A stretch of DNA of 64,000 nucleotides from Nostoc sp. 106C (GTDB lineage Bacteria; Cyanobacteriota; Cyanobacteriia; Cyanobacteriales; Nostocaceae), in assembly GCF_002154725.1 (NCBI RefSeq), contig NZ_MTAW01000098.1, forward strand, positions 1 to 64,000, read 5' to 3'. The notes beneath the pieces are model-generated. The model worked only from the letters and a program-made list of their open reading frames with translations. It was not told the origin of the DNA and made no database searches. How positions within the stretch are numbered: the stretch's first letter is position 1; each line of letters starts with the position of its first letter. Of this stretch, positions 38,833 to 54,348 are shown piece after piece. A program made the translations under genes and the position numbers.

Positions 38833-39234
38833 ATGACTAGCGAAATTACTGAAAAGCTCAAGCAAGCTTCTAATGATTTGCTAATGATGAGTGAGTCAGA
38901 TTATCCCTTTGAAGTTTTTTTCTGGTCCGATCGAGGTAAAGAAGATTTGACAAATCAAAAACTCTTACAATTAACAAGTCATTCTCAAGATACATCTCTT
39001 GAAACAGTAGACTTAGACTATTTTTTTCGGAATTGTGCTGAAGAGAAAGATTGGTACGATGAAACACAGAAACAAAATGTTCAAAAGTTTCAATTACTTA
39101 TACAAACATTAAAAGATAATCTTATTGATATTAAGGTTTATCGGTTGGGTACAGTCAGTATTGATGTCTATATTGTCGGTAAAACTGTATCTGGTGATTT
39201 AGCTGGAATTGCAACAAAAGTTGTGGAAACATAA
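38833..39234 (+). CDS. nuiA: Nuclease A inhibitor
   Basis: This 133-residue protein closely follows Anabaena NuiA. Features are LKQASNDLLMMSESDYPFEV at the start, DYFFRN...DWYDE in the middle, VYRLGTVSIDVYIVGKT and the terminal LAGIATKVVET. NuiA is a cytosolic inhibitor that blocks the NucA active site through its C-terminus, and the Thr-Glu end seen here is part of that contact. The gene faces nucA tail to tail, 59 bases apart. Confidence 0.92.
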   Translation: MTSEITEKLKQASNDLLMMSESDYPFEVFFWSDRGKEDLTNQKLLQLTSHSQDTSLETVDLDYFFRNCAEEKDWYDETQKQNVQKFQLLIQTLKDNLIDIKVYRLGTVSIDVYIVGKTVSGDLAGIATKVVET

Positions 39235-39247
39235 CTGACAAATCACT

Positions 39248-39273
39248 AGCCTGTCTTTAGATATAGACAGGCT
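39248..39273. terminator. Bidirectional terminator between nuiA and nucA
   Basis: agcctgtct (39248-39256) and agacaggct (39265-39273) form a perfect 9-bp stem, followed by a T-rich run on the plus strand, in the 59-base convergent gap. Confidence 0.7.
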
Positions 39274-39293
39274 TTAGTTTCAACTAATAAGTC

Positions 39294-40136
39294 TTACAAA
39301 GTATCAACTCTGGCCTCAATTGTACTTTGAACAGATGAAGAGACATTAGAAAGCAAATTGTAACCCGTGTTCACTTCGATAGAGTCAACACTAACTCTAT
39401 AGTCTCTCCAATTTGCACTAACACTTTGTGTATTCGGTGTGTTTACAGCAATTACTCTTGTGCTAGTAGTTACGCTACTAGCTCCATTATTTGGCCTATC
39501 TAAGACTACAATCACCTTCCAAATTCTGGATGGGACTGTAACGTTACCATTAGCGATAGTAGTTTTTGTTCCGTTTGACCCTGTTCCACCAGTGCCATAA
39601 GAACCTGAAATAATGTAGAGTTCTTTTCCTTGATTAACCACCAAATCTCTACAATAATTTTCCAGATTTGCCCATAGTCCCTGATTATTATTGGGTGCTT
39701 GGGGGATCATATTTGTCATTAAAAATGTGGCTGAGTTATTGGCTATCGTATTTGTCCTATCTGCAGAGGGAGTCATGTGACCACGGTCAAAGCCACTACC
39801 ACTGTAATCAGTGCCACTTACTCGATAGCAGCTTGAAGGTAATGTAGTATCTGCACGGAAATCATCTTGGCGAGGCGCACTTCCTAACCATGATGGGTTT
39901 AACTGCCAACTTACCCAATTTGGCGTTCCTCTGTAGCAGTTATAGGAAACCGCATACTGAGTTTTGTTTAATAACAAATTATTGTAACTAGTGCCAGCAC
40001 CGCTCGGATTTCCCATAGTCAAATGTACACTTGATGTTTGAGCAGTTATTGGCTTTTGTAGGTAATTCAGCAGCGTGAAAAATATTGCAGGTGCAGCTAT
40101 AGGTAGAATGACCCTGAAAAGTTTAGACTTCTTCAT
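39294..40136 (-). CDS. nucA: Secreted DNA/RNA non-specific endonuclease NucA
   Basis: This 280-residue beta-beta-alpha-Me nuclease has an N-terminal signal peptide (about 1-33). The catalytic DRGHMTPSADR contains the general-base His, and the Asn metal ligand is in the N-x7-N-x3-W region NNNQGLWANLE. Anabaena NucA cuts DNA and RNA and is exported, and the cognate inhibitor NuiA is encoded next door. Length agrees with NucA (about 274). Likely uses are nucleic-acid scavenging or competition. Confidence 0.92.
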   Translation of the reverse strand: MKKSKLFRVILPIAAPAIFFTLLNYLQKPITAQTSSVHLTMGNPSGAGTSYNNLLLNKTQYAVSYNCYRGTPNWVSWQLNPSWLGSAPRQDDFRADTTLPSSCYRVSGTDYSGSGFDRGHMTPSADRTNTIANNSATFLMTNMIPQAPNNNQGLWANLENYCRDLVVNQGKELYIISGSYGTGGTGSNGTKTTIANGNVTVPSRIWKVIVVLDRPNNGASSVTTSTRVIAVNTPNTQSVSANWRDYRVSVDSIEVNTGYNLLSNVSSSVQSTIEARVDTL

Positions 40137-41787: not shown

Positions 41788-42033
41788 ATGGAAAAGCACA
41801 AAAAAAGCTACAACGGTCATCTAGAAATAAACAGTCTAATTGATGATGCTGTAAATAATGCGATCGCACGACGCAATCAAGGTTTGGTTTCAGAAGATGC
41901 TTTGGCAGCTGTATCTGATGAAGAAGCCAAAAATGTTGCAGGTGGTCTAGCATCTACAACTACAACCATTGGTTTGATTGCTAAACCTCCGATTATTGTA
42001 GGCATCATCGCCATCCCCACTGAAACCATTTAG
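41788..42033 (+). CDS. RiPP precursor with double-Gly leader, Thr-rich and Cys-free core
   Basis: This 81-residue peptide has an acidic helical leader (1-53) ending EEAKNVAGG, the consensus for cleavage by C39 peptidase-transporters. The 28-residue core starts LASTTTTIG and continues with hydrophobic Pro/Ile-rich sequence (KPPIIVGIIAIP) to TETI. There is no Cys, and it lacks the Tyr-Gly splice motif of the two Nif11 peptides downstream. AGGAG precedes the ATG. The four consecutive Thr are candidates for dehydration by the kinase/HopA1 pair encoded later. Precursor identity is inferred from leader, size and context. Confidence 0.7.
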   Translation: MEKHKKSYNGHLEINSLIDDAVNNAIARRNQGLVSEDALAAVSDEEAKNVAGGLASTTTTIGLIAKPPIIVGIIAIPTETI

Positions 42034-42065
42034 CCATAAAGATTCTCTTCAATGAGGCTCAATTA

Positions 42066-42503
42066 ATGGAAAACATTGCTGCTGAAAAAACTACACTTTG
42101 CCCCAGTGCTAGACCAGAACCTGAGAATAGTGTGGTTTTCGGTCTTATCAGTGGAACAGTAGCAGAACCCCGTGTAGCTTATCTTAAGCAGCCGCAAACA
42201 CTCACGGATGAACTCATAGCCAAAGCTAGCCCAGTTACACCCGCGGAAATTTTTCGCACAGCCTCGCCTTGTGCCATAAAAGGTTGCCAACATTTTGATG
42301 GACAAGATTGTCGTCTAGCTACGCGCATTGTCGAAAAGTTACCTGCAATAGCAGAGGAATTACCCCCTTGTGCCATACGCAGAGATTGCCGATGGTGGCA
42401 ACAAGAAGGTAAGGCAGCTTGTATGCGTTGTCCTCAAGTAATTACAGATAACTACAATGCCTCTGAACTAGCAATTGAAGTAGCAATGCCAACTGCTATT
42501 TAA
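42066..42503 (+). CDS. Cys-rich accessory protein, possible metal or Fe-S binder
   Basis: This 145-residue protein has eight Cys at 12, 69, 74, 82, 102, 108, 119 and 122. Two clusters, C-x4-C-x7-C (SPCAIKGCQHFDGQDC) and C-x5-C-x10-C-x2-C, resemble auxiliary Fe-S or zinc sites and share a CAI(K/R) start, suggesting an internal duplication. The first 60 residues are likely disordered. It sits between a GG-leader peptide and the Nif11 precursors and starts 32 bases after the former. It may bind precursor or deliver electrons to the radical SAM enzyme. Not recognised beyond this. Confidence 0.6.
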   Translation: MENIAAEKTTLCPSARPEPENSVVFGLISGTVAEPRVAYLKQPQTLTDELIAKASPVTPAEIFRTASPCAIKGCQHFDGQDCRLATRIVEKLPAIAEELPPCAIRRDCRWWQQEGKAACMRCPQVITDNYNASELAIEVAMPTAI

Positions 42504-42522
42504 CTCATCGCAGGAGCAGATT

Positions 42523-42840
42523 ATGTCCTTAGAAAATGTTAGATCTTTCTATGAAAGACTAGCATCTGATGAAGCTTTCCGTAACCAAATACAAAGTGTT
42601 GAAAGCAAGGATGCGGGTAGAGAAATTTTGCAAAACGCTGGTTTTGATTTTACTCCAGCAGAATTTGAAGAATATACAGAGCAATTGCTAGAAACTAATG
42701 CAGCCAATGATGATTTAAAAGATTTAAATCCACAAGAATTAGAAGCTGTATTTGGTGGAGCAATACCTGTAATTTTTCCCGGTGTTCTGCCAATCCTGAT
42801 GTACGGAGTCGTAATTACCCAAATTCGTGGGTTGCTCTAA
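42523..42840 (+). CDS. Nif11-leader RiPP precursor with one MYG splice-like site
   Basis: This 105-residue precursor has an N-terminal 79-residue Nif11-type leader (MSLENVRSFYERLASDEAFR, GFDFTPAEFEEY, LEAVFGG) ending in a GG cleavage site. The 26-residue core is hydrophobic and contains ILMYGVV with Tyr94-Gly95. In Pleurocapsa the radical SAM splicease PlpX removes a tyramine unit at X-Tyr-Gly in Nif11-type precursors, leaving an alpha-keto-beta-amino amide. The motif and the downstream radical SAM gene make this a candidate spliceotide. The core has no Cys. Confidence 0.82.
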   Translation: MSLENVRSFYERLASDEAFRNQIQSVESKDAGREILQNAGFDFTPAEFEEYTEQLLETNAANDDLKDLNPQELEAVFGGAIPVIFPGVLPILMYGVVITQIRGLL

Positions 42841-42880
42841 TTCCTGATGGAGAATTTTGGTTTTTCTTAAGGAGAAAATT

Positions 42881-43234
42881 ATGTCTTTAGAGAACGTCAG
42901 AGCATTTTACGAAAAGCTAGCATCTGATGAAGCTTTTCGTAGCAAAATGCAAACTGTTGAAAGTAAGGATGAATGTAGCCAAGTTGTCAAAAGTGCTGGC
43001 TTTGATTTTACCCAAGAAGAGTTTGAAGAATATACAACTCAATTATTAGAATCAAATGCTGCTGAAGGTGATCTCAAAGATTTAGGCGAAAAAGAACTAG
43101 AAGCCGTTTTTGGCGGCATTCTTGGTAAGCCCATAGTTCAACCTTTATATGGAGTGATTGTGTGGCCTCCTATTAAATGGCCGCCTATTTACCCTCAGCC
43201 TTTGTATGGAGTTGTCACCACCACTGATATTTGA
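42881..43234 (+). CDS. Nif11-leader RiPP precursor with two LYG splice-like sites
   Basis: This 117-residue precursor starts at ATG 42881 behind AAGGAG. The leader (1-79) is about 70 percent identical to the previous peptide's. The core differs completely: QPLYGVI (YG at 90-91), WPPIKWPPIY and QPLYGVV (YG at 109-110). Two copies of QPLYGV in one core predict two splicing events, and the Trp-Pro-Pro repeats are an unusual spacer. Leader conserved and core variable is typical of RiPP precursor families. Confidence 0.82.
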   Translation: MSLENVRAFYEKLASDEAFRSKMQTVESKDECSQVVKSAGFDFTQEEFEEYTTQLLESNAAEGDLKDLGEKELEAVFGGILGKPIVQPLYGVIVWPPIKWPPIYPQPLYGVVTTTDI

Positions 43235-43260
43235 GGCAACTTAAAAAAGCTCAAGTTTAT

Positions 43261-43288
43261 GGGGAGGGATAAACTCTCATCCCTCCCC
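43261..43288 (+). promoter_or_regulatory. Strong hairpin between precursors and radical SAM gene
   Basis: ggggagggat (43261-43270) pairs perfectly with atccctcccc (43279-43288) across an 8-base loop. No T-run follows, so it is more likely an mRNA-stabilising or partial-termination hairpin that lets precursors be made in excess over the enzyme. Confidence 0.6.
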
Positions 43289-43321
43289 TTCGAGAACAAT
43301 TGATTAAGGGAGTTTATTCTC

Positions 43322-44578
43322 ATGACCTATCGCAGAATTAGTTATGCGGTTTGGGAAATTACCCTGAAGTGCAATCTTGCTTGTCAGCATTGTGGTTCTC
43401 GCGCTGGCCATACAAGGGCAAAAGAACTTTCTACTGAAGAAGCCCTTGATTTGGTCAGACAGATGGCGGAAGTTGGGATTACAGAAGTAACAATCATTGG
43501 CGGTGAGGCTTTTCTGCGTCCTGATTGGCTAGAGATTGCCCAAGCAATTACCAAAGCGGGAATGCTTTGCGGTATGACTACCGGGGGCTATGGTATTACT
43601 CTAGACACAGCACACAAAATGAAGGAAGCTGGAATTCATGTGATTTCTGTGTCTGTTGATGGTTTAGAAACAACTCACGATCGCATCCGTGGTAGACAAG
43701 GTTCATGGCAATGGGCGTTTAAAACCATGAGCCATCTGAAGCAAGCGGGTATTCCCTTCGGTTGCAATACGCAAATCAATCGCCTATCTGCACCAGAATT
43801 CCCTCGTATCTATGAACATCTGCGCGATGCGGGAATCTTCGCTTGGCAAATTCAATTAACCGTACCGATGGGGAATGCAGCCGATAATAGCGAAATTCTG
43901 CTGCAACCTTATGAATTACTGGATGTATACCCGATGATTGCGCGTGTTGCTCAACGAGCCAAGCAAGAAGGGGTACAAGTACAACCGGGAAATAACATCG
44001 GCTACTACGGCCCTTATGAGCGCTTTTTACGAGGCGGCGATGCTTGGACGTTTTGGCAAGGGTGCAGTGCGGGATTGTCTGCTTTAGGAATTGAAGCCGA
44101 TGGCGCGATTAAAGGTTGCCCTTCACTGCCAACTACAGCTTACACCGGTGGAAATATCCGCGATCGCTCTTTGCACAGCATCATTGAAGAAACCGAAGAA
44201 CTGCGGTTTAATTTAGGCGCTGGTACTCCCAAAGGCACAGAACATTTGTGGGGTTTCTGCAAAACTTGTGAATTTGCCGAACTATGTCGAGGTGGTTGCA
44301 GTTGGACTGCACACGTCTTTTTTGACAAGCGAGGTAATAATCCCTATTGCCATCATCGTGCCCTCACTCAACAAAAACAAGGCATCCGCGAACGAGTGTT
44401 TCTCCAACGTAGTGCTGATGGTAATCCCTTTGATAATGGAGAATTCGCCTTAGTAGAAGAGCCTATTAATGCTCCTTGGCCGGAAAACGATCCGCTTCAC
44501 TTTACTGCTGACCGCATTCAATGGCCAGACAGTTGGCAGGAAGAACCATCACTACCATCTTTAGTTGTTTTGAGTTAA
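43322..44578 (+). CDS. Radical SAM/SPASM peptide-modifying enzyme (PlpX-like splicease candidate)
   Basis: The 418-residue enzyme has the radical SAM cluster C17-x3-C21-x2-C24 (KCNLACQHCGSRAG) and SAM-binding GGEAF. The C-terminal SPASM region has Cys in GCSAG, KGCPS, FCKTCEFAELCRGGCS and PYCHH for auxiliary Fe-S clusters. It acts in the cytoplasm on peptides. Next to Nif11 precursors carrying Tyr-Gly motifs, and with a small protein immediately after it, the layout matches plpA-plpX-plpY. Tyramine excision is therefore the leading prediction; epimerisation or cross-linking are alternatives for the family. Confidence 0.87.
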   Translation: MTYRRISYAVWEITLKCNLACQHCGSRAGHTRAKELSTEEALDLVRQMAEVGITEVTIIGGEAFLRPDWLEIAQAITKAGMLCGMTTGGYGITLDTAHKMKEAGIHVISVSVDGLETTHDRIRGRQGSWQWAFKTMSHLKQAGIPFGCNTQINRLSAPEFPRIYEHLRDAGIFAWQIQLTVPMGNAADNSEILLQPYELLDVYPMIARVAQRAKQEGVQVQPGNNIGYYGPYERFLRGGDAWTFWQGCSAGLSALGIEADGAIKGCPSLPTTAYTGGNIRDRSLHSIIEETEELRFNLGAGTPKGTEHLWGFCKTCEFAELCRGGCSWTAHVFFDKRGNNPYCHHRALTQQKQGIRERVFLQRSADGNPFDNGEFALVEEPINAPWPENDPLHFTADRIQWPDSWQEEPSLPSLVVLS

Positions 44579-44602
44579 ATCAAGTTCGGCAACCTGAATC
44601 TT

Positions 44603-44797
44603 ATGAATGATAGCTCGACTGATTATCTACCTACAACAGATGGCGATCGCTCTCCATTGGAATTAGACTCTCAAGAACCTCTTTTACCTCGTTTAGCTTG
44701 GAACAGCCAAATAGCATATATGCGAGTTGTCTTTAAAGCTAAAAAGGCTTTAGATCGAATCGAAAAAGAAGCAGGGATTTTGAGCATTAACAAATAA
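44603..44797 (+). CDS. Small partner protein, candidate PlpY-like
   Basis: This 64-residue protein has an acidic, Pro/Ser-rich first half and a basic helix (LAWNSQIAYMRVVFKAKKALDRIEKE, given as two segments: LAWNSQIAYMR and VVFKAKKALDRIEKE). It starts 24 bases after the radical SAM stop, without a strong ribosome binding site. Known spliceases need a small partner, PlpY, encoded directly after PlpX. Position and size fit, but I cannot confirm homology from memory. It could otherwise be another precursor, although it lacks a GG site. Confidence 0.5.
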   Translation: MNDSSTDYLPTTDGDRSPLELDSQEPLLPRLAWNSQIAYMRVVFKAKKALDRIEKEAGILSINK

Positions 44798-44825
44798 TTT
44801 TTTGATAAATCTTCAACATTGGTTT

Positions 44826-45023
44826 ATGTCTAGACTAAAAGTTTCCGATTTAAATTCTGCTGGTTCTGAGTTTTTTCAAGATTCTGAGACTTTTCTCTTA
44901 GACTTAAAAGATGATGAACTTTGTATGCAATATGGTGGAATTTTTATTACCACTAATATCAGCGTAATTAACGTTCCTATCTCCGAAGATATTTTTGCTC
45001 CGTCTATTTCTTTCATTCGGTGA
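44826..45023 (+). CDS. RiPP precursor with double-Gly leader
   Basis: This 65-residue peptide starts at ATG 44826. Leader 1-38 (MSRLKVSDLNSAGSEFFQDS ... DELCMQYGG) has the cyanobacterial leader pattern of a DLxxxGSEFFxDSE helix, acidic residues and a terminal GG. Core 39-65 (IFITTNISVINV, PISEDIFAPSISFIR) has several Thr/Ser and no Cys; the only Cys (33) is in the leader. The QYGG in the leader looks like a splice motif but sits at the protease site. The first of the phosphotransferase-HopA1 section, it is a plausible substrate for dehydration. Confidence 0.68.
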   Translation: MSRLKVSDLNSAGSEFFQDSETFLLDLKDDELCMQYGGIFITTNISVINVPISEDIFAPSISFIR

Positions 45024-45125
45024 TTGAACATTGATGACTGGTTTAGCGGCTATTGTTGCCTCTAACCTTACCTCTGTAAAAACCTGCCTAACCATAATCT
45101 GAAGAATCACGATTACTGAACAATA

Positions 45126-45162
45126 CTAAAACAATTATGTTCCAAAAAAATAATTGTTTTAG
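45126..45162 (+). terminator. Hairpin after the GG-leader precursor
   Basis: ctaaaacaattat pairs with ataattgttttag around a run of A, and the plus strand downstream is T-rich. Probable terminator. Confidence 0.5.
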
Positions 45163-45264
45163 TTGCTTTAACAATAGTTAAATGTCAAACTTATAAATAT
45201 AGCGATTGGATAACTGATGGAATAATTTTAAAACAAATTTCAACTCAACTCAAAAACCACACCA

Positions 45265-45494
45265 ATGTCTACCATTAAAATTGAAAACATCGCTCCTAAA
45301 GGAAGCGAATTGTTCTCGATCGAGAAAGCTATTTGGATCGGTTGTCAGAAAGCGATATTCTCACCATTCAAGGAGGATATTTAACAATTAACTATACAAC
45401 AGTATTGACAACAAAAACTATAGTAACCACACCATACACCATCATAGGAACAGGGCCAATAATTCAACCAACACCTCCAGTATTCATAGCATAA
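45265..45494 (+). pseudogene. Frameshifted RiPP precursor with Thr-rich core
   Basis: From ATG 45265 the frame reads MSTIKIENIAPKGSELF, a typical leader start, then runs off. One base out of frame, from gat near 45319, it continues DRESYLDRLSESDILTIQGG, completing the leader. A Thr-rich core follows (YLTINYTTVLTTKTIVTTPY, IIGTGPIIQPTPP) to TAA at 45494. A single missing base near 45318 explains everything. The core has no Cys. It is either a recent pseudogene or a sequencing error. Confidence 0.75.
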
Positions 45495-45534
45495 GAGGTT
45501 TTATTGTTTTGTTTTTGCTGTAGGTTATTTATAA

Positions 45535-45566
45535 TAATAAACCCTCATGGCTAGTGAGAGTTTATT
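45535..45566 (+). terminator. Hairpin after the frameshifted precursor
   Basis: aataaaccctca pairs with tgagagtttatt with one mismatch, followed by acttaataatttt. Moderate terminator candidate. Confidence 0.4.
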
Positions 45567-45658
45567 ACTTAATAATTTTAAAAAAATATTTCACTAGCAA
45601 TATTGGGTTTTAAAACAAACATTTAAACTTATAAAGCTTGTTCGGACATTTAAAGGTT

Positions 45659-46792
45659 ATGAAATTCATTTTAAACTCCGATAATGTTTTGACTTATTTA
45701 ATTGAGCAGTACGTATGTAATCAATCTGATGCAATTCCCTGCACGATAGAGCCAATAACTGCAAAGAACTTTAATTTATTGCTAACTATTGCAGATAATC
45801 GTAAGCTTCTTGTGAAGCAAGAACGACATAACCAAGAAGGGAAAACTGCTGGTGAGTTTTTGGCTGAGTGGAGAATTCAAAAGTTTTTACAGCAATTTCC
45901 AAGTCTGAATAACTATCAGCATTTTTTACCAGAGGTACTGCATTTTGATGAATACAATTCCATTATTATCTTCAGATACCTCGATAATTATCAAGATTTA
46001 ATGGATTTTTACACAAAAGGAAACTCCTTCCCTACAGAAATTGCCACAGCAATTGGTACTATCTTAGGCACTATCCATCGCGATACTTTTAACAACCAAG
46101 AATATCAAGAATTTTTCTCTAAATCTTCAGATAATTTAATGGTTGACCAAGTATCGTATTTGGTGCGGAGATTGGAAAGGGTTGAACCAGAGATTTTTGG
46201 CTTGATACCTGATGATGGGTTAAAGTTCTTTGTTCTCTATCAGCGTTATGATAGTTTGGGAGAAGCGATCGCAGAACTAGGTAATGCTGTAATTCCTTCT
46301 TGTTTAACCCACAATGACCTAAAACTGAATAATATCCTCCTGCAAAAAGATTGGCAGTCCTCCAGCAATCATACAATCCGCTTAATTGATTGGGAACGTT
46401 CTGCTTGGGGAGATCCAGCATTTGATTTGGGAACACTTATTGGTAGCTACGTACAAATTTGGCTGGGTAGCTTAGTCATCAGTAATTCTTTGAGTATTGA
46501 AGAATCTCTGCGTTTAGCAATGACACCTTTAGAACTACTTCAGCCTTCAATTGGCGCATTAACTCAAGCTTATTTAAATAGCTTTCCAGAAATTGAAAAA
46601 CATCGCCCTGACTTTTTACAGCGGGTAGTGCAATTTACAGGTTTTGCCTTAATTCAACAAATTCAGGCGATGATTCAATATCAAAAATACTTTGGCAATA
46701 CAGGAATTGCGATGCTTCAGGTTGCTAAAACATTATTATGTCGTCCTGTACAATCAATGCCAACAATTTTTGGTACTGCTACGGTTATATAA
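45659..46792 (+). CDS. APH-fold phosphotransferase, class V lanthipeptide kinase-like (LxmK-type)
   Basis: The 377-residue protein has an aminoglycoside-phosphotransferase fold, with Lys53 in KLLVKQE, catalytic loop LTHNDLKLNNIL (218-220 HND) and metal-binding D244 in RLIDWERSAWGDPAFDLG. I start at ATG 45659 behind AAAGG. Followed immediately by a HopA1-family protein, it matches the split kinase and lyase pair that phosphorylates and then eliminates Ser/Thr in class V lanthipeptides (LxmK/LxmY). A similar pair occurs in thioamitide clusters. Substrates here would be the Thr/Ser-rich cores. An unrelated antibiotic or sugar kinase is possible but unlikely in this context. Confidence 0.78.
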   Translation: MKFILNSDNVLTYLIEQYVCNQSDAIPCTIEPITAKNFNLLLTIADNRKLLVKQERHNQEGKTAGEFLAEWRIQKFLQQFPSLNNYQHFLPEVLHFDEYNSIIIFRYLDNYQDLMDFYTKGNSFPTEIATAIGTILGTIHRDTFNNQEYQEFFSKSSDNLMVDQVSYLVRRLERVEPEIFGLIPDDGLKFFVLYQRYDSLGEAIAELGNAVIPSCLTHNDLKLNNILLQKDWQSSSNHTIRLIDWERSAWGDPAFDLGTLIGSYVQIWLGSLVISNSLSIEESLRLAMTPLELLQPSIGALTQAYLNSFPEIEKHRPDFLQRVVQFTGFALIQQIQAMIQYQKYFGNTGIAMLQVAKTLLCRPVQSMPTIFGTATVI

Positions 46793-46817
46793 ATCATTTC
46801 ATTGCAACTAAATAATT

Positions 46818-47924
46818 ATGCAATTATTAAATTCTACTCAATCTCAGTTAACTTTAACTGGGCGATTACTGGATGTACTGCAAGATATTGTTCGCAAAAT
46901 TGAAATTAAATCTGATTTTTCCATTCACCATCCAGACTATAAACCTTTAGAATTACCATCTCAAATCATTGAACGGTTTCAAAAAATGCCAACTCAGATG
47001 CAGCAGAAATATCTGAGTCTGCAACTGCGGAGTTTTCTTTATGGGATTTATTACAACGGTTCAATGCGCACTGCGCTAGCACTAAATAGTGAAGGAAATG
47101 CTTTGCCTCTCGATTTGGAAAATAATACTGTCTTGGGTATAGATATCAGTTTTTATGAGCAATTACATGAAAGTAATTGTGGAGAAGGTTATTTCGATCC
47201 TGGTTGGTCTGTAATTAGAGAAGAAATAGATGGTAGTTTAGCTGTAACTAAAGGTGGTTTGAGGTTACATATTCAGCGACATAAGCATCTTCAAGCTATT
47301 GAACAAGCCGCCGTAGTTGGCGATCTAGTAGCTATCCGAATGCCTAAAAACAGGGTGCAAAATGGTTTTTATATGGCAGTTGGCAATCTAGGTTTTCCTG
47401 GACTTGCCAAGGATAAAAATTCCCTAGCGACTGTACGAATCTATTTCAATTTAACGCCGGAAGGTGCTGTGTCAGTTATGCAAAGCTTGACACAGAGGTT
47501 AAATGAGTTAGCGATTTATTTTAGTTTTAAGGTTTTATATAATCCCAAAGATTACGGACGATATGATTCTGGAGTTTTATACTTTGATAAAAGCGATTAT
47601 CAAGTATTTCGGGGAGTTTTAGAAATTGTTTATCGGGAAAATAAGTTACATTTTCAGCCGGAAGTTCCCTTATTTACAATGCAGCTTAAACCTGGATTGG
47701 GTTTAGCAGAAGAACCAGATCAAAAGTTTGCCGAACACGAAAGCTTTGGCATGAATCGCTGCCAAATTGTAGCCAATGGGTTACTGGCAGCTTGGTATCA
47801 AAGTGATAATTCTCCAGAAGGGCGGATGCAAGCTATCCATAAGGAATTTTCGCTCATGGGAATTGATTTGCAGCGTACTTACTTAAATGCTAATTCTGAA
47901 GACATTTACCAGTTTTTGAACTGA
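46818..47924 (+). CDS. HopA1-family protein, class V lanthipeptide lyase-like (LxmY-type)
   Basis: This 368-residue protein resembles the HopA1/HopPsyA family, first known as type III effectors and later as RiPP enzymes that eliminate phosphate from phospho-Ser/Thr. Recognisable segments are LRSFLYGIYYNG, DPGWSV, VTKGGLRLHI with the following RHKH, VRIYFNLTPEGA and the C-terminal SFGMNRCQIVANGLL. It starts 26 bases after the kinase, and its stop overlaps the start of the aldo/keto-reductase-like gene (TGATG), showing translational coupling. No secretion system is present, so a RiPP role is preferred to effector function. Confidence 0.8.
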   Translation: MQLLNSTQSQLTLTGRLLDVLQDIVRKIEIKSDFSIHHPDYKPLELPSQIIERFQKMPTQMQQKYLSLQLRSFLYGIYYNGSMRTALALNSEGNALPLDLENNTVLGIDISFYEQLHESNCGEGYFDPGWSVIREEIDGSLAVTKGGLRLHIQRHKHLQAIEQAAVVGDLVAIRMPKNRVQNGFYMAVGNLGFPGLAKDKNSLATVRIYFNLTPEGAVSVMQSLTQRLNELAIYFSFKVLYNPKDYGRYDSGVLYFDKSDYQVFRGVLEIVYRENKLHFQPEVPLFTMQLKPGLGLAEEPDQKFAEHESFGMNRCQIVANGLLAAWYQSDNSPEGRMQAIHKEFSLMGIDLQRTYLNANSEDIYQFLN

Positions 47925-48940
47925 TGCTAATAACTGATCTTTCTCCACAGGTTTTAGTCACAACAAATAAAAATGCTTCTGCAAATCCTAAATTCCCAGA
48001 AACAGATTTGCCTTTCTATCGAAAACTGGGACGAACTGACCTCACAGTTAGCTGTTTAGGTTTAGGAGGCGGCGGTCATATTTCTAGTGAAGATACCCAT
48101 TACGCCTTTGACCAAGGAATCAACTACTTTTTTTATTCCAGCGACCTGCATCACCATATCTATAGTTCAATGGCTGGGGCACTGCGCCAACTGTGTGGAC
48201 GTAGTTCTGCAAAGCGAGAGCAAGTTATACTCGCAACAGTAACTTATATCAAAAGTCCAGAAATGGCGATCGCTGCTCTGTTCGATCAATTTGTCGATTT
48301 ACAAATTGACTATATTGATGTGTTTTTCTGGGGCTGGATTGGCGTTAAAGATGGGTCGGCTTTACAAGATTGCTTGCAACTTTCTCCTGATTTAAGAGGG
48401 CCTAACTCTGTATATCAGCGCAGCATTGAAAAAATGCTTGGCATCTCAGAACGCCTGAAAAAAATGGGAGCAGTTCGCTATATTGGTGCTTCTTTTCACG
48501 ATCTCAATCTTGCTCAACAGTGGTCTAATAGCCCTCTGTTGGATGTAGTCATGGTCAGGCACAATGTTGCTCATCGGTCTGCACAATCGCAGGTATTTGA
48601 TCGGCTAGATCCCCAAGACCCTCATCGTCCTGGTATCGTCACATTTAAATCTACAGGCTCTCATACAGGAGTTCTTTGGGATGCGCCACAAAGCTTACCA
48701 GCAGGTTGTTGGCAACCATCAGTACCCGATTTATATCGCTACTCTTTAAGTCAGAATTGTGTCGATGTTTGTTTAGCCGGATGGCGATATCGGGAAGAAA
48801 TTGATGCTGCGATCGCCGGAATCCAAAAAGGCAAGCTTTCCCCAGCAGAAATTGACTATCTCAATCTATACGGAGATTTACATCGTAATAGGCTTTCGCT
48901 GGCGGATATTCCACCAGAACGCTTAATTTATCGTTCCTAG
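47924..48940 (+). CDS. Aldo/keto-reductase-like protein lacking the catalytic tetrad
   Basis: This 338-residue TIM-barrel protein is recognisable from YRKLGRTDLTVSCLGLGGGG, the strand/helix periodicity, and VRYIGASFHDL. The four catalytic positions of AKRs (Asp, Tyr, Lys, His) all look replaced. GINYFFYSSDLHHH stands where GINFFDTADxYG is expected, VILATVTY replaces VxxATK, and DVFFWGW replaces the DLxxxH segment. It may bind NADPH or peptide without reducing a carbonyl, or use different chemistry. Coupled to the HopA1 gene, it might reduce dehydroamino acids or act as a scaffold. Confidence 0.75.
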   Translation: MLITDLSPQVLVTTNKNASANPKFPETDLPFYRKLGRTDLTVSCLGLGGGGHISSEDTHYAFDQGINYFFYSSDLHHHIYSSMAGALRQLCGRSSAKREQVILATVTYIKSPEMAIAALFDQFVDLQIDYIDVFFWGWIGVKDGSALQDCLQLSPDLRGPNSVYQRSIEKMLGISERLKKMGAVRYIGASFHDLNLAQQWSNSPLLDVVMVRHNVAHRSAQSQVFDRLDPQDPHRPGIVTFKSTGSHTGVLWDAPQSLPAGCWQPSVPDLYRYSLSQNCVDVCLAGWRYREEIDAAIAGIQKGKLSPAEIDYLNLYGDLHRNRLSLADIPPERLIYRS

Positions 48941-48963
48941 ATATCAAAAATAAACTACAGCTT

Positions 48964-49710
48964 ATGCTAGATTCCATACCACAATTAACATTCCCAGAAA
49001 TTACACCCGCTTCAGATGAGGAAATCCTGGCTTACTTACGTCATTCTTTTACAATTGCGACAATAGCAGCAGCTGCGGAACAAAATATATACATACTTAG
49101 AGTGTGCGATCGCTTGGGAATTACTGTTACTGATGAAGAATTGCAAGCAGCAGGCGACTCTTTTCGCCACAAGCACAAACTGCTAGGAGTTTCAGAAACC
49201 ATAGCATGGCTGACACAGCAACGAATTAGCGCAGAAGATTGGACTCAAGGAATTCGCTTATCTCTACTCGCTCAAAAATTAAAAGAACATCTCTTTGGTG
49301 AGAACGTTGATGCTCACTACATTAACAACCGCGATAGTTATAAGCGTGTAGCTTTGTCGCAAATTTTAGTCAAGGATTTAACAGCAGCAACTACTATTGT
49401 TCAACTTCTACAAGAAAATCGGGTATCATTCCCTGCTTTAGCATTGGAATATTCACGAGGGAAACAATCAAAAGAAAATGGCGGTTTCCTTGGAATCCGC
49501 TTTCTGGCTGAATTATTGCCAGAAATAACAAGAGCGATCGCTTTTGCACAGGAAGGTGAAGTAGTTGGGCCAATTCAAACTCAAATGGGTTATCATATCC
49601 TCCGAATTGAGAAGTGGATACCCGCAAATTTAAGTGAAATTCGAGAAGAAATTTTAGAGTCTTTATTTCAAGCTTGGTTAAAACCAAACAACTTTAATAG
49701 AAACTTATAA
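48964..49710 (+). CDS. PpiC-type peptidyl-prolyl isomerase/foldase (plus strand)
   Basis: This 248-residue protein has an N-terminal helical SurA-like part (about 15-110) and a parvulin domain (about 118-225) with VALSQILVKD, GGFLGIRFLAELLPEI and GPIQTQMGYHILRIE. No signal peptide is seen, so it acts in the cytosol. Parvulin-like proteins are regular companions of peptidase-transporter bacteriocin clusters in cyanobacteria, and the Pro-rich cores here could need it. It is 23 bases after the aldo/keto-reductase-like gene. A divergent paralogue lies at 51937-52698. Confidence 0.83.
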   Translation: MLDSIPQLTFPEITPASDEEILAYLRHSFTIATIAAAAEQNIYILRVCDRLGITVTDEELQAAGDSFRHKHKLLGVSETIAWLTQQRISAEDWTQGIRLSLLAQKLKEHLFGENVDAHYINNRDSYKRVALSQILVKDLTAATTIVQLLQENRVSFPALALEYSRGKQSKENGGFLGIRFLAELLPEITRAIAFAQEGEVVGPIQTQMGYHILRIEKWIPANLSEIREEILESLFQAWLKPNNFNRNL

Positions 49711-49753
49711 TTTTAATTGATGGCATAGCAAAATAATTTTTTTGAAAATCATC

Positions 49754-49786
49754 AAGCCTACCTATAACTTTTGTTTAGGTGGGTTT
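49754..49786 (+). terminator. Imperfect hairpin after ppiC
   Basis: aagcctaccta pairs imperfectly with taggtgggttt and the sequence continues T/A-rich. It probably ends the kinase-HopA1-ppiC operon. Confidence 0.45.
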
Positions 49787-49995
49787 ATTCATATATCTCT
49801 AGTTATCAAGTAATTATTTTTACCTTGAGATCATGAAAATAAAAGTAACTTTTATGTTCATAAAATAGAAGTTTATCTGTAGATATATGAATTTATTTAT
49901 GGCAATTTATTAATAGAAAGCTAGAAATTCAATTGATGAGTTTCAGCGATCTATATCTCTAACCAAAAATTGTTCAAAATTCTCAGGAGATTGAA

Positions 49996-50211
49996 ATGGC
50001 TGCTATTGCAATTCATGATTTACGTCCTGCTGGTGCAGATTTATTTGCTGGTTATGAAAACTTCATGAGTGATTTAGTTGACTCCGAACTAAATGCAGTT
50101 AATGGTGGTATTTCACCTTTAGTTATCTGGGGTGTAGCAATCACATCAGAATATGTAATTAGTGCTTTTGGCGTAGGCGTTGGTGCTGGTATTTATACAG
50201 CACTTAAGTAA
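49996..50211 (+). CDS. GG-leader bacteriocin-like peptide alpha, copy 1
   Basis: This 71-residue precursor has leader 1-38 (MAAIAIHDLRPAGADLFAGY through ELNAVNGG) ending in GG. The 33-residue core runs ISPLVIWGVAIT to AFGVGVGAGIYTALK, hydrophobic with overlapping GxxxG motifs and no Cys. Such motifs drive helix-helix pairing in class IIb two-peptide bacteriocins. AGGAG is in place upstream. It is followed 26 bases later by its likely partner beta. Export through the CNBD-C39-ABC transporter encoded nearby is inferred. Confidence 0.75.
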   Translation: MAAIAIHDLRPAGADLFAGYENFMSDLVDSELNAVNGGISPLVIWGVAITSEYVISAFGVGVGAGIYTALK

Positions 50212-50237
50212 TTTAAAAATAAACTGAGGAGTAAACA

Positions 50238-50429
50238 ATGGCTACAATTCGCATTGAACAATTAAGCGCTGGTTTTGAACTGATTGCTGACGAAGAAACA
50301 TTTTTGGATGAACTCACTGATAGCGATCTAGATCTGAACAAAGGTGGAATCACCCCAGTAATTACAAGCCTGATCGTGTTCTCCGCAGGCTATGGTGTAG
50401 GCAGAGCAATCAGTGAAATTTTCAAATAA
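50238..50429 (+). CDS. GG-leader bacteriocin-like peptide beta, copy 1
   Basis: This 63-residue precursor has leader 1-37 (MATIRIEQLSAGFELIADEE through LDLNKGG) and a 26-residue core (ITPVITSLIVFSAGYGVGRA then ISEIFK) with a GYGVG stretch and an amphipathic Lys-ending tail. No Cys. It is paired with peptide alpha in both duplication units, so the two probably act together. Confidence 0.75.
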   Translation: MATIRIEQLSAGFELIADEETFLDELTDSDLDLNKGGITPVITSLIVFSAGYGVGRAISEIFK

Positions 50430-50980
50430 CCGTTGATATAACTAAAGGTTAAATTACCAATAGCAAGAGCAAAAGTTATGTTTTAACATGACTTTCTGCT
50501 CTTATTTTATTTATGTATTTTTTTAGCTAATAATACCAATTTAATATGAAGATGCATATAATTTAGCCTGCCTGCGCAGGCTTTGTTTATTTAGCACTGG
50601 GCTTCCAGCCTGAGAGTGTTAATGTGCAGCTTCACAGAGAATTTGTATAAGTCTATTCCACAAATTTTTAGTGTATTTAATTGAAAAGCTTAGGACAGAA
50701 AGCAGATTTATTCATTTAGTCTGTATATCTAAGCTTTGTTTGTTTAATCTCTGGCTATAAGTCCGATAGTATAAGCTACTTAATTTGATGTCGTCTTAGC
50801 TAGATACTTGGAAAATAATAGTAACTTTTATGTTCATTAAATGGAGCATTATCTCTAGATATATCAATTTGTTTATGGCAATTTATTAATAGAAGTTAAT
50901 AAAAGACTAAAAATTCAATTGACGAATTTTAGCAAACTTCTACCTATCCAAAATCCTTCAAAATTATTAGGAGTTTGAAA
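50430..50980. other. Intergenic region between the two peptide units
   Basis: This contains the hairpin terminator at 50465-50503, a further AT-rich stretch without ORFs that includes a short inverted block (agcctgcctgcgcaggct), and the duplicated promoter region from 50811 on. Confidence 0.6.
50465..50503 (+). terminator. Terminator after peptide unit 1
   Basis: aagagcaaaagttatg pairs with catgactttctgctctt (one bulge) around ttttaa, followed by attttatttat. Confidence 0.65.
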
Positions 50981-51199
50981 ATGGCTGCTATTACAGTTCA
51001 TGACTTACGTCCTGCTGGTGCAGATTTATTTGCTGGTTCTGAAAATTTCATGAGTGATTTAGCTGATTCTGAACTAAACACAGTTAACGGTGGTTTAACA
51101 CCTGTAGTAATTTGGGGTGTAGCAATCGCATCAGAATATGTAATCGGTGCTTTTGCTGTTGGTGTTGGTGCTGGTATTTATACAGCAGTTAAAAAATAA
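50981..51199 (+). CDS. GG-leader bacteriocin-like peptide alpha, copy 2
   Basis: This 72-residue paralogue of the peptide at 49996, starting at ATG 50981, has AGGAG upstream. The leader again ends NGG. The core begins LTPVVIWGVAIA and ends AVGVGAGIYTAVKK, keeping the GxxxG-type run but changing several residues. Divergence is mainly in the core, as expected of peptides under selection for altered activity. Confidence 0.75.
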   Translation: MAAITVHDLRPAGADLFAGSENFMSDLADSELNTVNGGLTPVVIWGVAIASEYVIGAFAVGVGAGIYTAVKK

Positions 51200-51225
51200 T
51201 CTAGAAATAAAGTGAAGAGTAAACA

Positions 51226-51417
51226 ATGGCTACAATTCGTATTGAACAGTTAAGCGCAGGTTTTGAACTGATTGCTGACGAAGAAACATTCTTAGATGAA
51301 CTCACTGATAGCGATCTAGACTTGAATAAAGGTGGAATCACCCCAGTAATTACAAGCCTGATCGTGTTCTCCGCAGGCTATGGTGTAGGCAGAGCAATCA
51401 CCGCAATTTTCAAATAA
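51226..51417 (+). CDS. GG-leader bacteriocin-like peptide beta, copy 2
   Basis: This 63-residue peptide is identical to copy 1 at 50238 except at the end (AITAIFK instead of AISEIFK). The leader and GG site are the same. Near-identity at DNA level in the core, with synonymous differences in the leader, suggests a recent duplication or gene conversion. Confidence 0.75.
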   Translation: MATIRIEQLSAGFELIADEETFLDELTDSDLDLNKGGITPVITSLIVFSAGYGVGRAITAIFK

Positions 51418-51441
51418 CCATTGATTATTATATCAATGGTT
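51416..51441 (+). terminator. Hairpin at the end of peptide unit 2
   Basis: aaccattgat (51416-51425) pairs with atcaatggtt (51432-51441), followed by atttctc. It overlaps the stop codon of peptide beta. Confidence 0.5.
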
Positions 51442-51584
51442 ATTTCTCAAGTTGTTAAATTGTGAAATCATTAAAAGTAGGAGTCACAAAGATATAAGTC
51501 TAGGATTAATTTTGACTCCTGCTTTCTCAGCAAAGATGAGGCTGTAAACAAAGATTTTGTCAACACTCAAAAGAGGTAAAATTT

Positions 51585-51842
51585 ATGTTCAGCAATCGTT
51601 CTAACCCTCTGGATATTACAATTCCCATATTTGTCATTATGGGAATTTCACAAATAATTCTTGGTAATTATGTACTCGCTGGTATTTTCCTAATAATAGC
51701 TTTAGGACAATTTGTTGTACCTAGAGTTGGAGTTAACAATTTAAATCAATTGCATAGACCTGAAGTTCTCTTTGTCTGGGCGATGATTACAACATTTACC
51801 TGTTTAGTTATCTACCAAATTTATAAAGACGCGTTTTCCTAG
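51585..51842 (+). CDS. Small membrane protein, possible immunity protein
   Basis: This 85-residue protein has about three hydrophobic helices (about 10-25, 28-48, 63-80), a short basic loop and the ATG behind AGAGG. No family was recognised. It directly follows the bacteriocin-like peptides, and small multi-helix membrane proteins in this position often give self-immunity. That role is inferred from position only. Confidence 0.55.
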   Translation: MFSNRSNPLDITIPIFVIMGISQIILGNYVLAGIFLIIALGQFVVPRVGVNNLNQLHRPEVLFVWAMITTFTCLVIYQIYKDAFS

Positions 51843-52824: not shown

Positions 52825-54348
52825 TTACAATTTTACTCCACCTTGTTGCAACTTTTTAAACGGATCTATAAGAAAATCGATAATACGGCGCTGGCGTACA
52901 ATCACTTCAGCTGTAGCAGTATCTCCTGGATGTAAGGCAATACATTTATTAGCTGAAGGAATACAATCTTGTTTTAAAGCAATTTCTAAGTTATAAGCTG
53001 CCACTTTTCCATTAGGTGTATCTATCTCTGTTGTAGTAGGAGAAATCTTAATTAACTCCCCTGAGACGATACCATAGTCCTGAAATGGATAAGCATCAAA
53101 CTTTAACTTTACTGGTAATCCTTTTTGTAAAAAACCACTTTCGGTAGTTGCCATTTGTGCCCGAACTATTAGAGGCGAATTTCTCGGTGCAATTTCCGCT
53201 ACCATTGTGCCAGATTGCACTACAGAGCCGGCTTTTTGAATTGGTAACTGAAATAGCGTACCATTGACAGTAGCTCTTATCTCTCGTTGTCCTAATTGAA
53301 ATTTTAATGCTTCAATCTGACTATTAGTTTGAGCAATTTCTGCTTTTAAAGAAGTAATTTCTGTATCTAATGTTTTCTGTTGATCGGCAATTTTTAGTAA
53401 GGCTAGCTGACCAGAACGAGTTAAGGACTGATAACCTCTTTCTTGTTCTTTAAGTCGTAAATATGCTTGTTCAATATCTGCACTAGCTTGGCGAAGATTT
53501 CGCTCGTAACTACTTTGTTGTTCTTCTAGACGTAACTTGGACTGTTCAATATCTGATTTGCTTTGTTCATATAATTTTTGTTTATCTTTGCCTATATCTT
53601 GCTTTTCTACTAGATTAATTTCTGGAACAATTCCTTCTTGTTTTAGCTTTCTATAACGTTCTACTTCTCGTTGTGTACTTGCTAAACTACTCTCCATCAA
53701 TTTATTAACAGTTCGGCTGTTTTCAAGAGTTTGCCGTGCCTGATTTAATTGGGATAATTTTTCTTCTTTCTGTAATTCATAGGAATTTCTTAAAGTATTA
53801 ATATTCTGTCGTGCTTGGTCAACTTGAGCCTGTTTTTCTAACTGTTGAGATTGATTTTGTTGTTGTTGAGTTGTCAAAGATACAAGTAACTGATTTTGAG
53901 ATGAATTTAACTGTGACAACCGATTTAATTGTCCTTCTAACTTATCCTGAGCTTGACGCAACTCAGCCTTTACTAATTCCGATTCCAGCAGTAATAAAAT
54001 CTGTCCAGATTTAACTGATTCGCCTTCTTTAACGCGAATTTCAGCAACAGTTCCTGCTACAGGAGCATCGAGTTTAATTGTTTTATCTTTAGGTTCAATT
54101 CTTCCTCTAGATGTACCAGTTTCATCTACTTTAGATAATATTGCCCAAGGTAAAATTATAGATACAATAATCATCAAAAAATACAGCAATCCTCTTGTCC
54201 AAACCTGTGGCAGACTTTCAAGCGATTCTTTAGTTATTTCAGACCAATCATCTTTCGTTGTTACTGGTAATGGGGGTGGTAAATTTTCTGGAGAAGATGC
54301 ATTTTGTATTAATTGCGTTTTAACCCGTCCATTTAATAAATCTGTCAT
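52825..54348 (-). CDS. HlyD-family adaptor for the peptide exporter
   Basis: This 507-residue membrane fusion protein has a cytoplasmic N-terminus (about 1-48), one membrane helix (about 52-70), a lipoyl half (VAGTVAEIRVKEGESVKSGQ), a very long Gln-rich coiled coil (about 125-350), a second lipoyl half and a C-terminal beta-barrel. It pairs with the CNBD-C39-ABC transporter upstream to carry peptides across the envelope to a TolC channel. The layout is that of bacteriocin and RTX exporters. It lies 117 bases downstream of the transporter. Confidence 0.88.
   Translation of the reverse strand: MTDLLNGRVKTQLIQNASSPENLPPPLPVTTKDDWSEITKESLESLPQVWTRGLLYFLMIIVSIILPWAILSKVDETGTSRGRIEPKDKTIKLDAPVAGTVAEIRVKEGESVKSGQILLLLESELVKAELRQAQDKLEGQLNRLSQLNSSQNQLLVSLTTQQQQNQSQQLEKQAQVDQARQNINTLRNSYELQKEEKLSQLNQARQTLENSRTVNKLMESSLASTQREVERYRKLKQEGIVPEINLVEKQDIGKDKQKLYEQSKSDIEQSKLRLEEQQSSYERNLRQASADIEQAYLRLKEQERGYQSLTRSGQLALLKIADQQKTLDTEITSLKAEIAQTNSQIEALKFQLGQREIRATVNGTLFQLPIQKAGSVVQSGTMVAEIAPRNSPLIVRAQMATTESGFLQKGLPVKLKFDAYPFQDYGIVSGELIKISPTTTEIDTPNGKVAAYNLEIALKQDCIPSANKCIALHPGDTATAEVIVRQRRIIDFLIDPFKKLQQGGVKL

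What the first reader, a model, noticed from the sequence alone, without database searches (positions are those of the whole stretch)
41788..51842. Hybrid RiPP locus: radical SAM splicease-like unit beside a class V lanthipeptide-type kinase/HopA1 pair
Two maturation systems normally found in separate clusters sit within 4 kb: Nif11 precursors with Tyr-Gly motifs plus a radical SAM/SPASM enzyme and small partner (plp-like), and an APH-fold kinase plus HopA1-like protein (LxmK/LxmY-like). They share GG leaders and apparently one exporter. If one precursor is processed by both, the product would contain beta-amino keto-amides and dehydroamino acids, a class I do not know to be described.
Basis: partly seen in the sequence, partly recalled or inferred. 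Interest (0 to 1): 0.9.

Follow-up and report, generated by a model that had tools for sequence, protein, structure and literature searches.

The report
Cyanobacterial peptide-modifying island, shared exporter
A stretch of cyanobacterial DNA holds several separate kits for making chemically altered small peptides, parked beside one export machine; the arrangement recurs in other cyanobacteria, and the peptides look like separate products rather than one hybrid molecule.

Summary
A PlpX-type splicease module (two Nif11 precursors with LYG/MYG sites, radical SAM TIGR04103, small partner) lies about 1 kb upstream of an APH-kinase/HopA1-lyase pair, and a C39-ABC/HlyD/SurA exporter follows. The pairing recurs: 5 of 17 splicease genomes in a class survey, and 23 of 78 named splicease loci, carry kinase and/or HopA1 genes nearby. 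On the radical SAM tree the association is gained or lost repeatedly.

The "one hybrid product" reading is not supported. Precursors split by leader family. Nif11 cores carry the splice motif (116 of 117) and little Ser/Thr. Kinase/HopA1-associated "ELFxDSESFL" cores are Ser/Thr-richer and rarely carry it (3 of 64 in linked loci). Each module also occurs alone with its own precursors. None of the window's 9 precursors has Cys in its core, so "class V lanthipeptide" fails here; Dha/Dhb peptides without thioethers are expected.

A third unit, for which no description was found, lies in the same locus: a GG precursor with a G(L/I)I-motif core plus a Cys-rich 145-aa protein. It recurs with or without either of the others. 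Best model: modular RiPP island, parallel pathways, one exporter. Function is inferred, not assayed.

The parts
41788..42033 (+). precGG41: GG precursor, 81 aa, leader ..EINSLIDDAVNNAIARR..VAGG, core with two G(L/I)I motifs (IGLIAKPPIIVGIIA)
   Evidence: homologues beside Cys145 in 33 of 38 named loci with Cys145 and in 9 of 12 further loci, three of these weak or by eye
42066..42503 (+). Cys145: 145-aa Cys-rich protein, no Pfam/NCBIfam match; candidate maturation partner of precGG41
   Evidence: 8 invariant Cys positions in 22 sequences; AlphaFold model uninformative, pLDDT 42.5
42523..42840 (+). Nif11 precursor a, core with MYG
   Evidence: TIGR03798 51 bits; core
42881..43234 (+). Nif11 precursor b, core with two LYG
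   Evidence: TIGR03798 57.2 bits; core
43322..44578 (+). radical SAM/SPASM splicease (PlpX family)
   Evidence: TIGR04103 850.5 bits, cut-off 725; C17/C21/C24 and C-terminal-half Cys invariant in 17
44603..44797 (+). 64-aa partner at the position of plpY
   Evidence: homologue present in 79 of 79 named loci and 15 of 16 unnamed ones (not detected in L046); model: mainly one helix, pLDDT 68
44826..45023 (+). small GG precursor (SEFFQDSETFL leader), Ser/Thr core IFITTNISVINVPISEDIFAPSISFIR
   Evidence: leader-HMM 68 bits; similar cores just upstream of the kinase in L037/L118, L110, L121
45265..45494 (+). Thr-rich GG precursor, leader and core pieces in two different frames (broken here, or an assembly error)
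   Evidence: Thr-rich cores on unbroken leaders in L112 and L110; not mended
45656..46792 (+). APH-fold kinase, LanK-like
   Evidence: PF01636 E 1.6e-11; NF038156 89 bits, below cut-off 315; HNDLKLNN and IDWE motifs
46818..47924 (+). HopA1-domain protein, LanY-like phospho-Ser/Thr lyase (activity inferred)
   Evidence: PF17914 E 2e-58; R207 63/65, K238 51/65, R248 65/65 in the aligned set
47924..48940 (+). aldo/keto-reductase-like protein lacking the usual catalytic Lys and His; its first base is the last base of the HopA1 gene
   Evidence: PF00248 31.5 bits; 15-sequence alignment
48964..49710 (+). PpiC-like peptidyl-prolyl isomerase of the kinase/HopA1 cassette
   Evidence: PF00639 E 2.3e-13; TIGR04500 60 bits, below cut-off 180
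49996..50429 (+). two-peptide GG precursor pair, copy 1 (49996-50211 and 50238-50429)
   Evidence: leader-HMM 71 and 62 bits
50978..51417 (+). two-peptide GG precursor pair, copy 2 (50978-51199 and 51226-51417)
   Evidence: direct repeats 88% and 93%, spacing about 985; leader-HMM 72 and 62 bits
51585..51842 (+). 85-aa hydrophobic protein accompanying the peptide pairs (immunity candidate, inferred)
   Evidence: homologues beside such pairs in L037, L039, L050, L061, L068
51937..52698 (-). SurA/PpiC-like export accessory
   Evidence: PF00639 E 2.6e-8
52825..54348 (-). HlyD adaptor
   Evidence: TIGR01843 227 bits, over cut-off
54466..57216 (-). C39-peptidase ABC exporter, 916 aa
   Evidence: PF03412 E 3e-42, PF00664, PF00005

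Best explanation
A modular RiPP island of a cyanobacterium whose nearest splicease relatives are Nostocales: separate precursor-plus-enzyme units work in parallel and deliver GG-leader peptides to one C39-ABC/HlyD/SurA exporter. (1) Spliceotide unit: the radical SAM enzyme and its small partner excise tyramine at LYG/MYG sites in Nif11 precursors and leave alpha-keto-beta-amino-amide residues. (2) Dehydration unit: the kinase phosphorylates Ser/Thr in precursors with the ELFxDSESFL-type leader, and the HopA1 lyase eliminates phosphate to Dha/Dhb. With no Cys in these cores no thioether is expected. The AKR-like and PpiC-like proteins act after or alongside this step (role unknown). (3) precGG41/Cys145 unit of unknown chemistry. 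Shown by sequence: the parts, their recurrence, and the split of motifs between leader families. Inferred: each enzyme's activity, leader specificity, and export by the shared transporter.
For: Splicease family over its cut-off with MYG/LYG cores. YG in 116 of 117 distinct Nif11 cores, 0 of 41 precGG41 cores, 3 of 64 ELFxDSESFL cores in linked loci; Ser+Thr about 9%, 14% and 19% in linked loci. ELFxDSESFL precursors in 27 of 40 HopA1 regions without splicease; the other 13 are exactly one 13-row HopA1 clade. They are also in 22 of 23 linked splicease loci but only 11 of 55 unlinked ones. Splicease modules occur without kinase/HopA1, several next to the same exporter type (L042-L045). SurA-, HlyD- or ABC-like exporter genes in 22 of 23 linked and 26 of 55 unlinked loci. 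In L180 a graspetide-type gene (MvdD pre-ATP-grasp domain E 2.5e-38) sits in the same kind of exporter island with kinase/HopA1 and Cys145. The kinase/HopA1 genes lie on the splicease strand in 17 and on the other strand in 6 of 23 loci.
Against: Splicing by PlpXY does not need the leader (PMC10533398, passages), so leader families do not forbid cross-processing. Both copies of the second pair peptide in the window, and the one in L118, carry a GYG site. One HopA1 set of 20 rows is 17 splicease-linked and reaches beyond Nostocales, so the partnership is tighter than chance sharing of an exporter would suggest. Nif11 cores in linked loci have slightly more Ser/Thr than in unlinked ones (9.0 vs 7.4%, p 0.014, not corrected for kinship). 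The leader profile was built from peptides of loci with kinase or kinase/HopA1 genes, so its tie to kinase/HopA1 is partly built in; the 55 unlinked loci and the 13-row clade are the controls. The C39-ABC gene itself was seen in 12 of 23 linked stretches; several of the others are cut by contig or flank ends. No product is known.
Confidence: 0.75

Rival explanations
1. True hybrid pathway: at least one precursor is processed by both splicease and kinase/HopA1, giving a peptide with beta-amino-keto-amide and dehydroamino residues.
For: Recurrent linkage, 23 of 78 loci; HopA1 set 17 of 20 linked; leader-independent splicing; GYG in both copies of the window's second pair peptide and in L118's; slightly higher Ser/Thr in linked Nif11 cores.
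Against: Motifs split between precursor families. YG in ELFxDSESFL cores is commoner in splicease-free regions (32 of 94) than in linked loci (3 of 64). Both modules occur as complete-looking units elsewhere.
Confidence: 0.1
2. Two independent clusters that touch by chance, with no shared exporter or function.
For: Each module is found alone; on the radical SAM tree the linked label changes 16 times, 7 forced by starred branches.
Against: 5 of 17 genomes linked against about 0.06 expected; exporter genes in 22 of 23 linked loci; a HopA1 set mostly found in splicease loci, 17 of 20.
Confidence: 0.05
3. Kinase/HopA1 make true class V lanthipeptides (thioether rings) here.
For: LanK+LanY-like pair; some relatives' cores have Cys: 17 of 64 in linked loci, 17 of 94 in splicease-free regions.
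Against: 0 of 9 window precursors have Cys in the core; no second APH/cyclase gene among the 20 gene products scanned; kinase below the LxmK cut-off.
Confidence: 0.1

Closest known systems
Spliceotide pathway (PlpX/PlpY, Pleurocapsa sp. PCC 7319)
   Same: radical SAM family TIGR04103 over cut-off, Nif11 precursor with LYG/MYG, small partner downstream
   Different: no PoyD-type epimerase or nitrile-hydratase-leader precursor among the 20 gene products scanned; precGG41/Cys145 and kinase/HopA1 units added; partner not shown to be an RRE
Class V lanthipeptide dehydratase LanK/LanY (CaoK/CaoY, LxmK/LxmY); cyanobacterial 'type-B' LanA noted in PMC9486802
   Same: separate APH kinase and HopA1 lyase encoded together, kinase motifs kept
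   Different: no Cys in the window's cores, no LanX-like second APH found, AKR-like and PpiC-like genes instead, GG leader and C39 exporter
Group I/II cyanobacterial bacteriocin clusters (Wang et al. 2011, PMC3140520)
   Same: C39-ABC + HlyD + SurA beside GG precursors
   Different: 'radical SAM' and 'phosphotransferase' do not occur in its main text; figures and supplementary tables not seen; here several enzyme modules share the exporter
Two-peptide class IIb bacteriocins
   Same: paired small GG peptides with hydrophobic Gly-rich cores and an adjacent hydrophobic small protein
   Different: sub-threshold profile match only (TIGR03949 16.3 and 16.9 bits, cut-off 21.5); associated with kinase/HopA1

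Membership tests
Spliceotide (PlpXY) pathway | radical SAM/SPASM of TIGR04103 | tested here: met
   850.5 bits, cut-off 725; Cys positions invariant in 17
Spliceotide (PlpXY) pathway | Nif11-type precursor with XYG in core | tested here: met
   116 of 117 distinct homologous cores carry YG
Spliceotide (PlpXY) pathway | PlpY partner (truncated RRE) | tested here: inconclusive
   conserved small gene with the radical SAM gene (79 of 79 named, 15 of 16 unnamed loci); model mainly one helix, pLDDT 68; PlpY sequence not compared
Spliceotide (PlpXY) pathway | tyramine excision | not testable with these tools
   needs MS
Class V lanthipeptide | co-encoded LanK (APH) and LanY (HopA1) | tested here: met
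   PF01636 and PF17914 over their cut-offs, adjacent genes
Class V lanthipeptide | kinase in the LxmK equivalog family | tested here: not met
   NF038156 89 bits, cut-off 315
Class V lanthipeptide | Cys in core for (methyl)lanthionine | tested here: not met
   0 of 9 window precursors
Class V lanthipeptide | LanX-type cyclase (second APH-fold protein) | tested here: not met
   only one APH protein among the 20 scanned gene products, 41.8-57.2 kb; rest of genome not searched
Group I/II cyanobacterial bacteriocin cluster | C39-ABC, HlyD and SurA/rotamase genes together | tested here: met
Group I/II cyanobacterial bacteriocin cluster | N-terminal CAP_ED domain on the transporter | tested here: inconclusive
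   about 200 aa precede C39 but no Pfam match there at E 0.01
Two-peptide class IIb bacteriocin | profile match and paired peptides | tested here: inconclusive
   pairs present; TIGR03949 below cut-off

The most novel reading that the evidence does not exclude
The locus carries an undescribed RiPP class. The Cys-rich 145-aa protein (8 invariant Cys, probably metal-binding) matures the precGG41 precursor family at its recurring G(L/I)I core motif. This unit is traded between exporter islands together with splicease and kinase/HopA1 modules, and in some species core sites such as GYG in the pair peptides are touched by more than one enzyme system.
Probability: 0.3. Interest if true: 0.8.

Novelty: new variant of a known kind. 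Interest (0 to 1): 0.55.

Why it matters
Splicease and kinase/HopA1 dehydratase pathways turn out to be repeatedly assembled beside one exporter in cyanobacteria. That gives a concrete set of loci to test whether GG exporters act as shared ports for unrelated peptide chemistries. It also points to a recurring third gene pair (precGG41/Cys145) without a known function, and to Cys-free dehydropeptides made by LanK/LanY-like enzymes.

Tried and rejected
Hybrid single precursor: tested by counting YG and Ser/Thr per leader family; rejected as the main reading, though not excluded. Chance neighbourhood: rejected by the linkage counts. Cys145 as part of the splicease unit only: rejected after the class survey and extra loci showed it beside HopA1 or alone. 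Structure of Cys145: model too poor to use; no relative among solved structures (best E 1.1). RRE nature of the 64-aa partner: not settled. AKR-like protein as an ordinary carbonyl reductase: doubtful, as the catalytic Lys and His positions are replaced in 15 of 15 (the tetrad is recalled, not from a call); nearest solved relatives are potassium-channel beta subunits (E 5.9e-7). Promoter/terminator scan: promoter-like matches below the shuffled mean (28 vs 35.6), terminator-like 12 vs 7.9 (sd 3.5), so no operon limits were drawn. Mapping of HopA1 R207/K238/R248 to CaoY R187/K219/R229 rests on spacing only (31 and 10 against 32 and 10; CaoY residues), without an alignment to CaoY.

Rows dropped before counts: L117 (same stretch as L116) (the 78-locus counts) and from the trees, but not nor's locus counts (24 of 79). 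In one search, 7 of 128 Nif11 rows, 2 of 44 precGG41 rows and 7 of 85 ELFxDSESFL rows had no GG found or a core under 10 residues and were dropped, as were repeats of a core already counted; the same rule held. ELFxDSESFL precursors were counted at 20 bits or more of my own profile. Some named loci are the same organisms as unnamed ones (L100=L041, L114=L038, L118=L037, L126=L040, L129=L042, L166=L050, L172=L044), so the two surveys overlap. 35 of the 78 named loci hold under 21,000 bases; of the 43 fuller ones 16 are linked, all 16 with exporter genes. Of the 23 linked loci, 20 have both kinase (over 300 aa) and HopA1 (over 250 aa); L114 and L156 hold broken or fragmentary genes and L166 a kinase without HopA1. 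Exporter genes among the 23: SurA-like in 22, HlyD-like in 17, ABC-like in 12; among the 55 unlinked: SurA-like 25, ABC-like 19.
Full report
OBSERVATION. The window lies in contig C147 of an 8.66-Mb cyanobacterial genome. On the plus strand from 41788 run: a GG precursor (precGG41), a Cys-rich 145-aa protein (Cys145), two Nif11 precursors, a radical SAM/SPASM enzyme, a 64-aa protein, a Ser/Thr-rich GG precursor, a Thr-rich GG precursor in two broken frames, an APH-fold kinase, a HopA1-domain protein, an AKR-like protein, a PpiC-like protein, two copies of a two-peptide pair and a small hydrophobic protein. A SurA-like protein, HlyD and a C39-ABC exporter follow on the other strand. The radical SAM enzyme exceeds the TIGR04103 cut-off (850.5 vs 725 bits). 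The kinase matches the class V LxmK model only weakly (89 vs 315). HopA1 is clear (E 2e-58).

RECURRENCE. In 388 genomes drawn from the class, HopA1 occurs in 68 and TIGR04103 over cut-off in 16 (one more, G168, full length just under cut-off; G313 in two pieces). Of the 17 full-length cases, 5 have HopA1 within 6 kb: the window, G348, G225, G357, G088. Chance would give about 0.06 (using rounded genome sizes). A scan of named genomes with 17 aligned radical SAM proteins found 363 relatives and kept the best 80, giving 79 loci, 78 after dropping one duplicate; this sample leans to the window's relatives. Of the 78, 23 carry kinase and/or HopA1 genes (20 with both at full length) and 22 of these 23 also SurA-, HlyD- or ABC-like exporter genes, against 26 of 55 without kinase/HopA1. 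The C39-ABC gene itself was seen in 12 of the 23, with several stretches ending before it. The kinase/HopA1 genes lie on the splicease strand in 17 loci (15 of them downstream) and on the other strand in 6.

HISTORY. On a quick HopA1 tree of 65 proteins the window falls in a starred set of 20, of which 17 are splicease-linked on the same strand and 3 unlinked. The set reaches from Nostocales to Okeania, Microseira and a unicellular strain. Other linked cases lie elsewhere, and the label needs 9 changes. On the radical SAM tree (81 proteins) the linked label needs 16 changes, 7 forced by starred branches. So the combination was made or lost several times, and one HopA1 lineage mostly keeps it. 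Both trees are quick ones with SH-aLRT support only.

WHO MODIFIES WHAT. Kinase/HopA1 regions without splicease (40 examined) carry GG precursors with an ELFxDSESFL-type leader in 27; the other 13 are exactly one HopA1 clade without such precursors. Within splicease loci these precursors occur in 22 of 23 with kinase/HopA1 and 11 of 55 without. The leader profile was seeded from loci with kinase or kinase/HopA1 genes, so only the controls, not the profile, carry weight. Distinct Nif11 cores carry YG in 42 of 42 (linked) and 74 of 75 (unlinked); precGG41 cores in 0 of 41; ELFxDSESFL cores in 3 of 64 (linked) and 0 of 12 (unlinked). In splicease-free kinase/HopA1 regions YG is commoner, 32 of 94, which is opposite to what cross-processing would predict. 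Ser+Thr is 19% in linked ELFxDSESFL cores and 9% in linked Nif11 cores. Against this reading: linked Nif11 cores have slightly more Ser/Thr than unlinked ones (p 0.014, kinship not corrected), splicing is leader-independent (PMC10533398, passages), and both copies of the window's second pair peptide hold GYG.

MECHANISM. From PMC11002830 and PMC10533398 (passages), PlpXY excises tyramine at XYG, naturally at MYG and LYG, the same sites as here. From PMC9486802 (passages and sections 6 and 7), CaoK phosphorylates and CaoY eliminates, with Lys219, Arg187 and Arg229 important. Here the kinase motifs H[NGS]DxxxxN and hhDWE are in 62 and 59 of 65 proteins aligned, and HopA1 R207, K238 and R248 in 63, 51 and 65 of 65. 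The correspondence to CaoY is by spacing only. With no Cys in any of the 9 window cores, dehydroamino peptides without thioethers are expected. The AKR-like protein lacks the usual catalytic Lys and His in 15 of 15 sequences (tetrad recalled), so its role is open.

THIRD UNIT. Cys145 is found in 19 of 376 genomes searched. It is beside the splicease in 7 of these (compare), beside HopA1 without splicease in L179-L182, and with neither in L175-L178 (L175 holds only a 53-aa kinase-like fragment; L178 is a 4.9-kb contig). A precGG41-type precursor lies next to it in 33 of 38 named loci with Cys145 and in 9 of 12 further loci; of these nine, L182 and L183 are weak profile matches (16-17 bits) and L181 was judged by eye, and the L178 core lacks the motif. 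No Pfam, NCBIfam or solved-structure relative was found.

KNOWN OR NEW. The exporter set resembles groups I/II of Wang et al. 2011 (PMC3140520, passages and sections 5 and 8); their supplementary tables and Figure 2 were not seen. Homologues of the kinase/HopA1 pair in cyanobacteria were noted before (PMC7794033 passages; PMC9486802). PMC9415263 (passages) describes kintamdin, made by a HopA1-like/kinase pair, and in the passages seen cites spliceases as background. I found no paper describing splicease plus kinase/HopA1 in one locus. The searches were made, in an open-licence library that lacks most subscription journals; most of what they listed was seen as listing only, and the 2018 Science paper on spliceases was not read. 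No paper search was aimed at precGG41 or Cys145, so 'undescribed' for that pair rests on the absence of a family match.

VERDICT. Real, recurrent and more complex than reported, but best read as parallel pathways sharing an exporter. All functions are inferred from sequence.

Noticed in passing
41788-42503; L175-L183: precGG41 precursor plus Cys145 form a recurring two-gene unit of unknown chemistry, also without splicease or kinase/HopA1.
   Followed up: partly
45265-45494: Thr-rich precursor with leader and core in different frames; Thr-rich cores on unbroken leaders in L112 and L110.
   Followed up: partly
47924-48940: AKR-like protein conserved in kinase/HopA1 cassettes but without the usual catalytic Lys and His.
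   Followed up: partly
49820-51425: Tandem duplication (spacing about 985) of a two-peptide precursor pair.
   Followed up: partly
L053, L064, L069, L070, L074, L075, L077-L082, L084: A HopA1/kinase clade in the window's family with no GG precursors of this leader type nearby; one member in the window's own genome (C175). Function unknown.
   Followed up: no
L180 10378-12374; L182 4091-5534: Graspetide-type genes in exporter or HopA1 islands that also carry Cys145: MvdD pre-ATP-grasp domain in L180; in L182 judged by eye.
   Followed up: no
38833-40136: NuiA-like nuclease inhibitor next to a DNA/RNA non-specific endonuclease family gene.
   Followed up: no
L184 9419-10297; L185 9520-9909: Cys145-like proteins (292 and 129 aa) with no RiPP gene recognised nearby.
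   Followed up: no
L116 11718 and 13035: Second, divergent kinase/HopA1 pair (39% and 44% identity) in one splicease locus.
   Followed up: no
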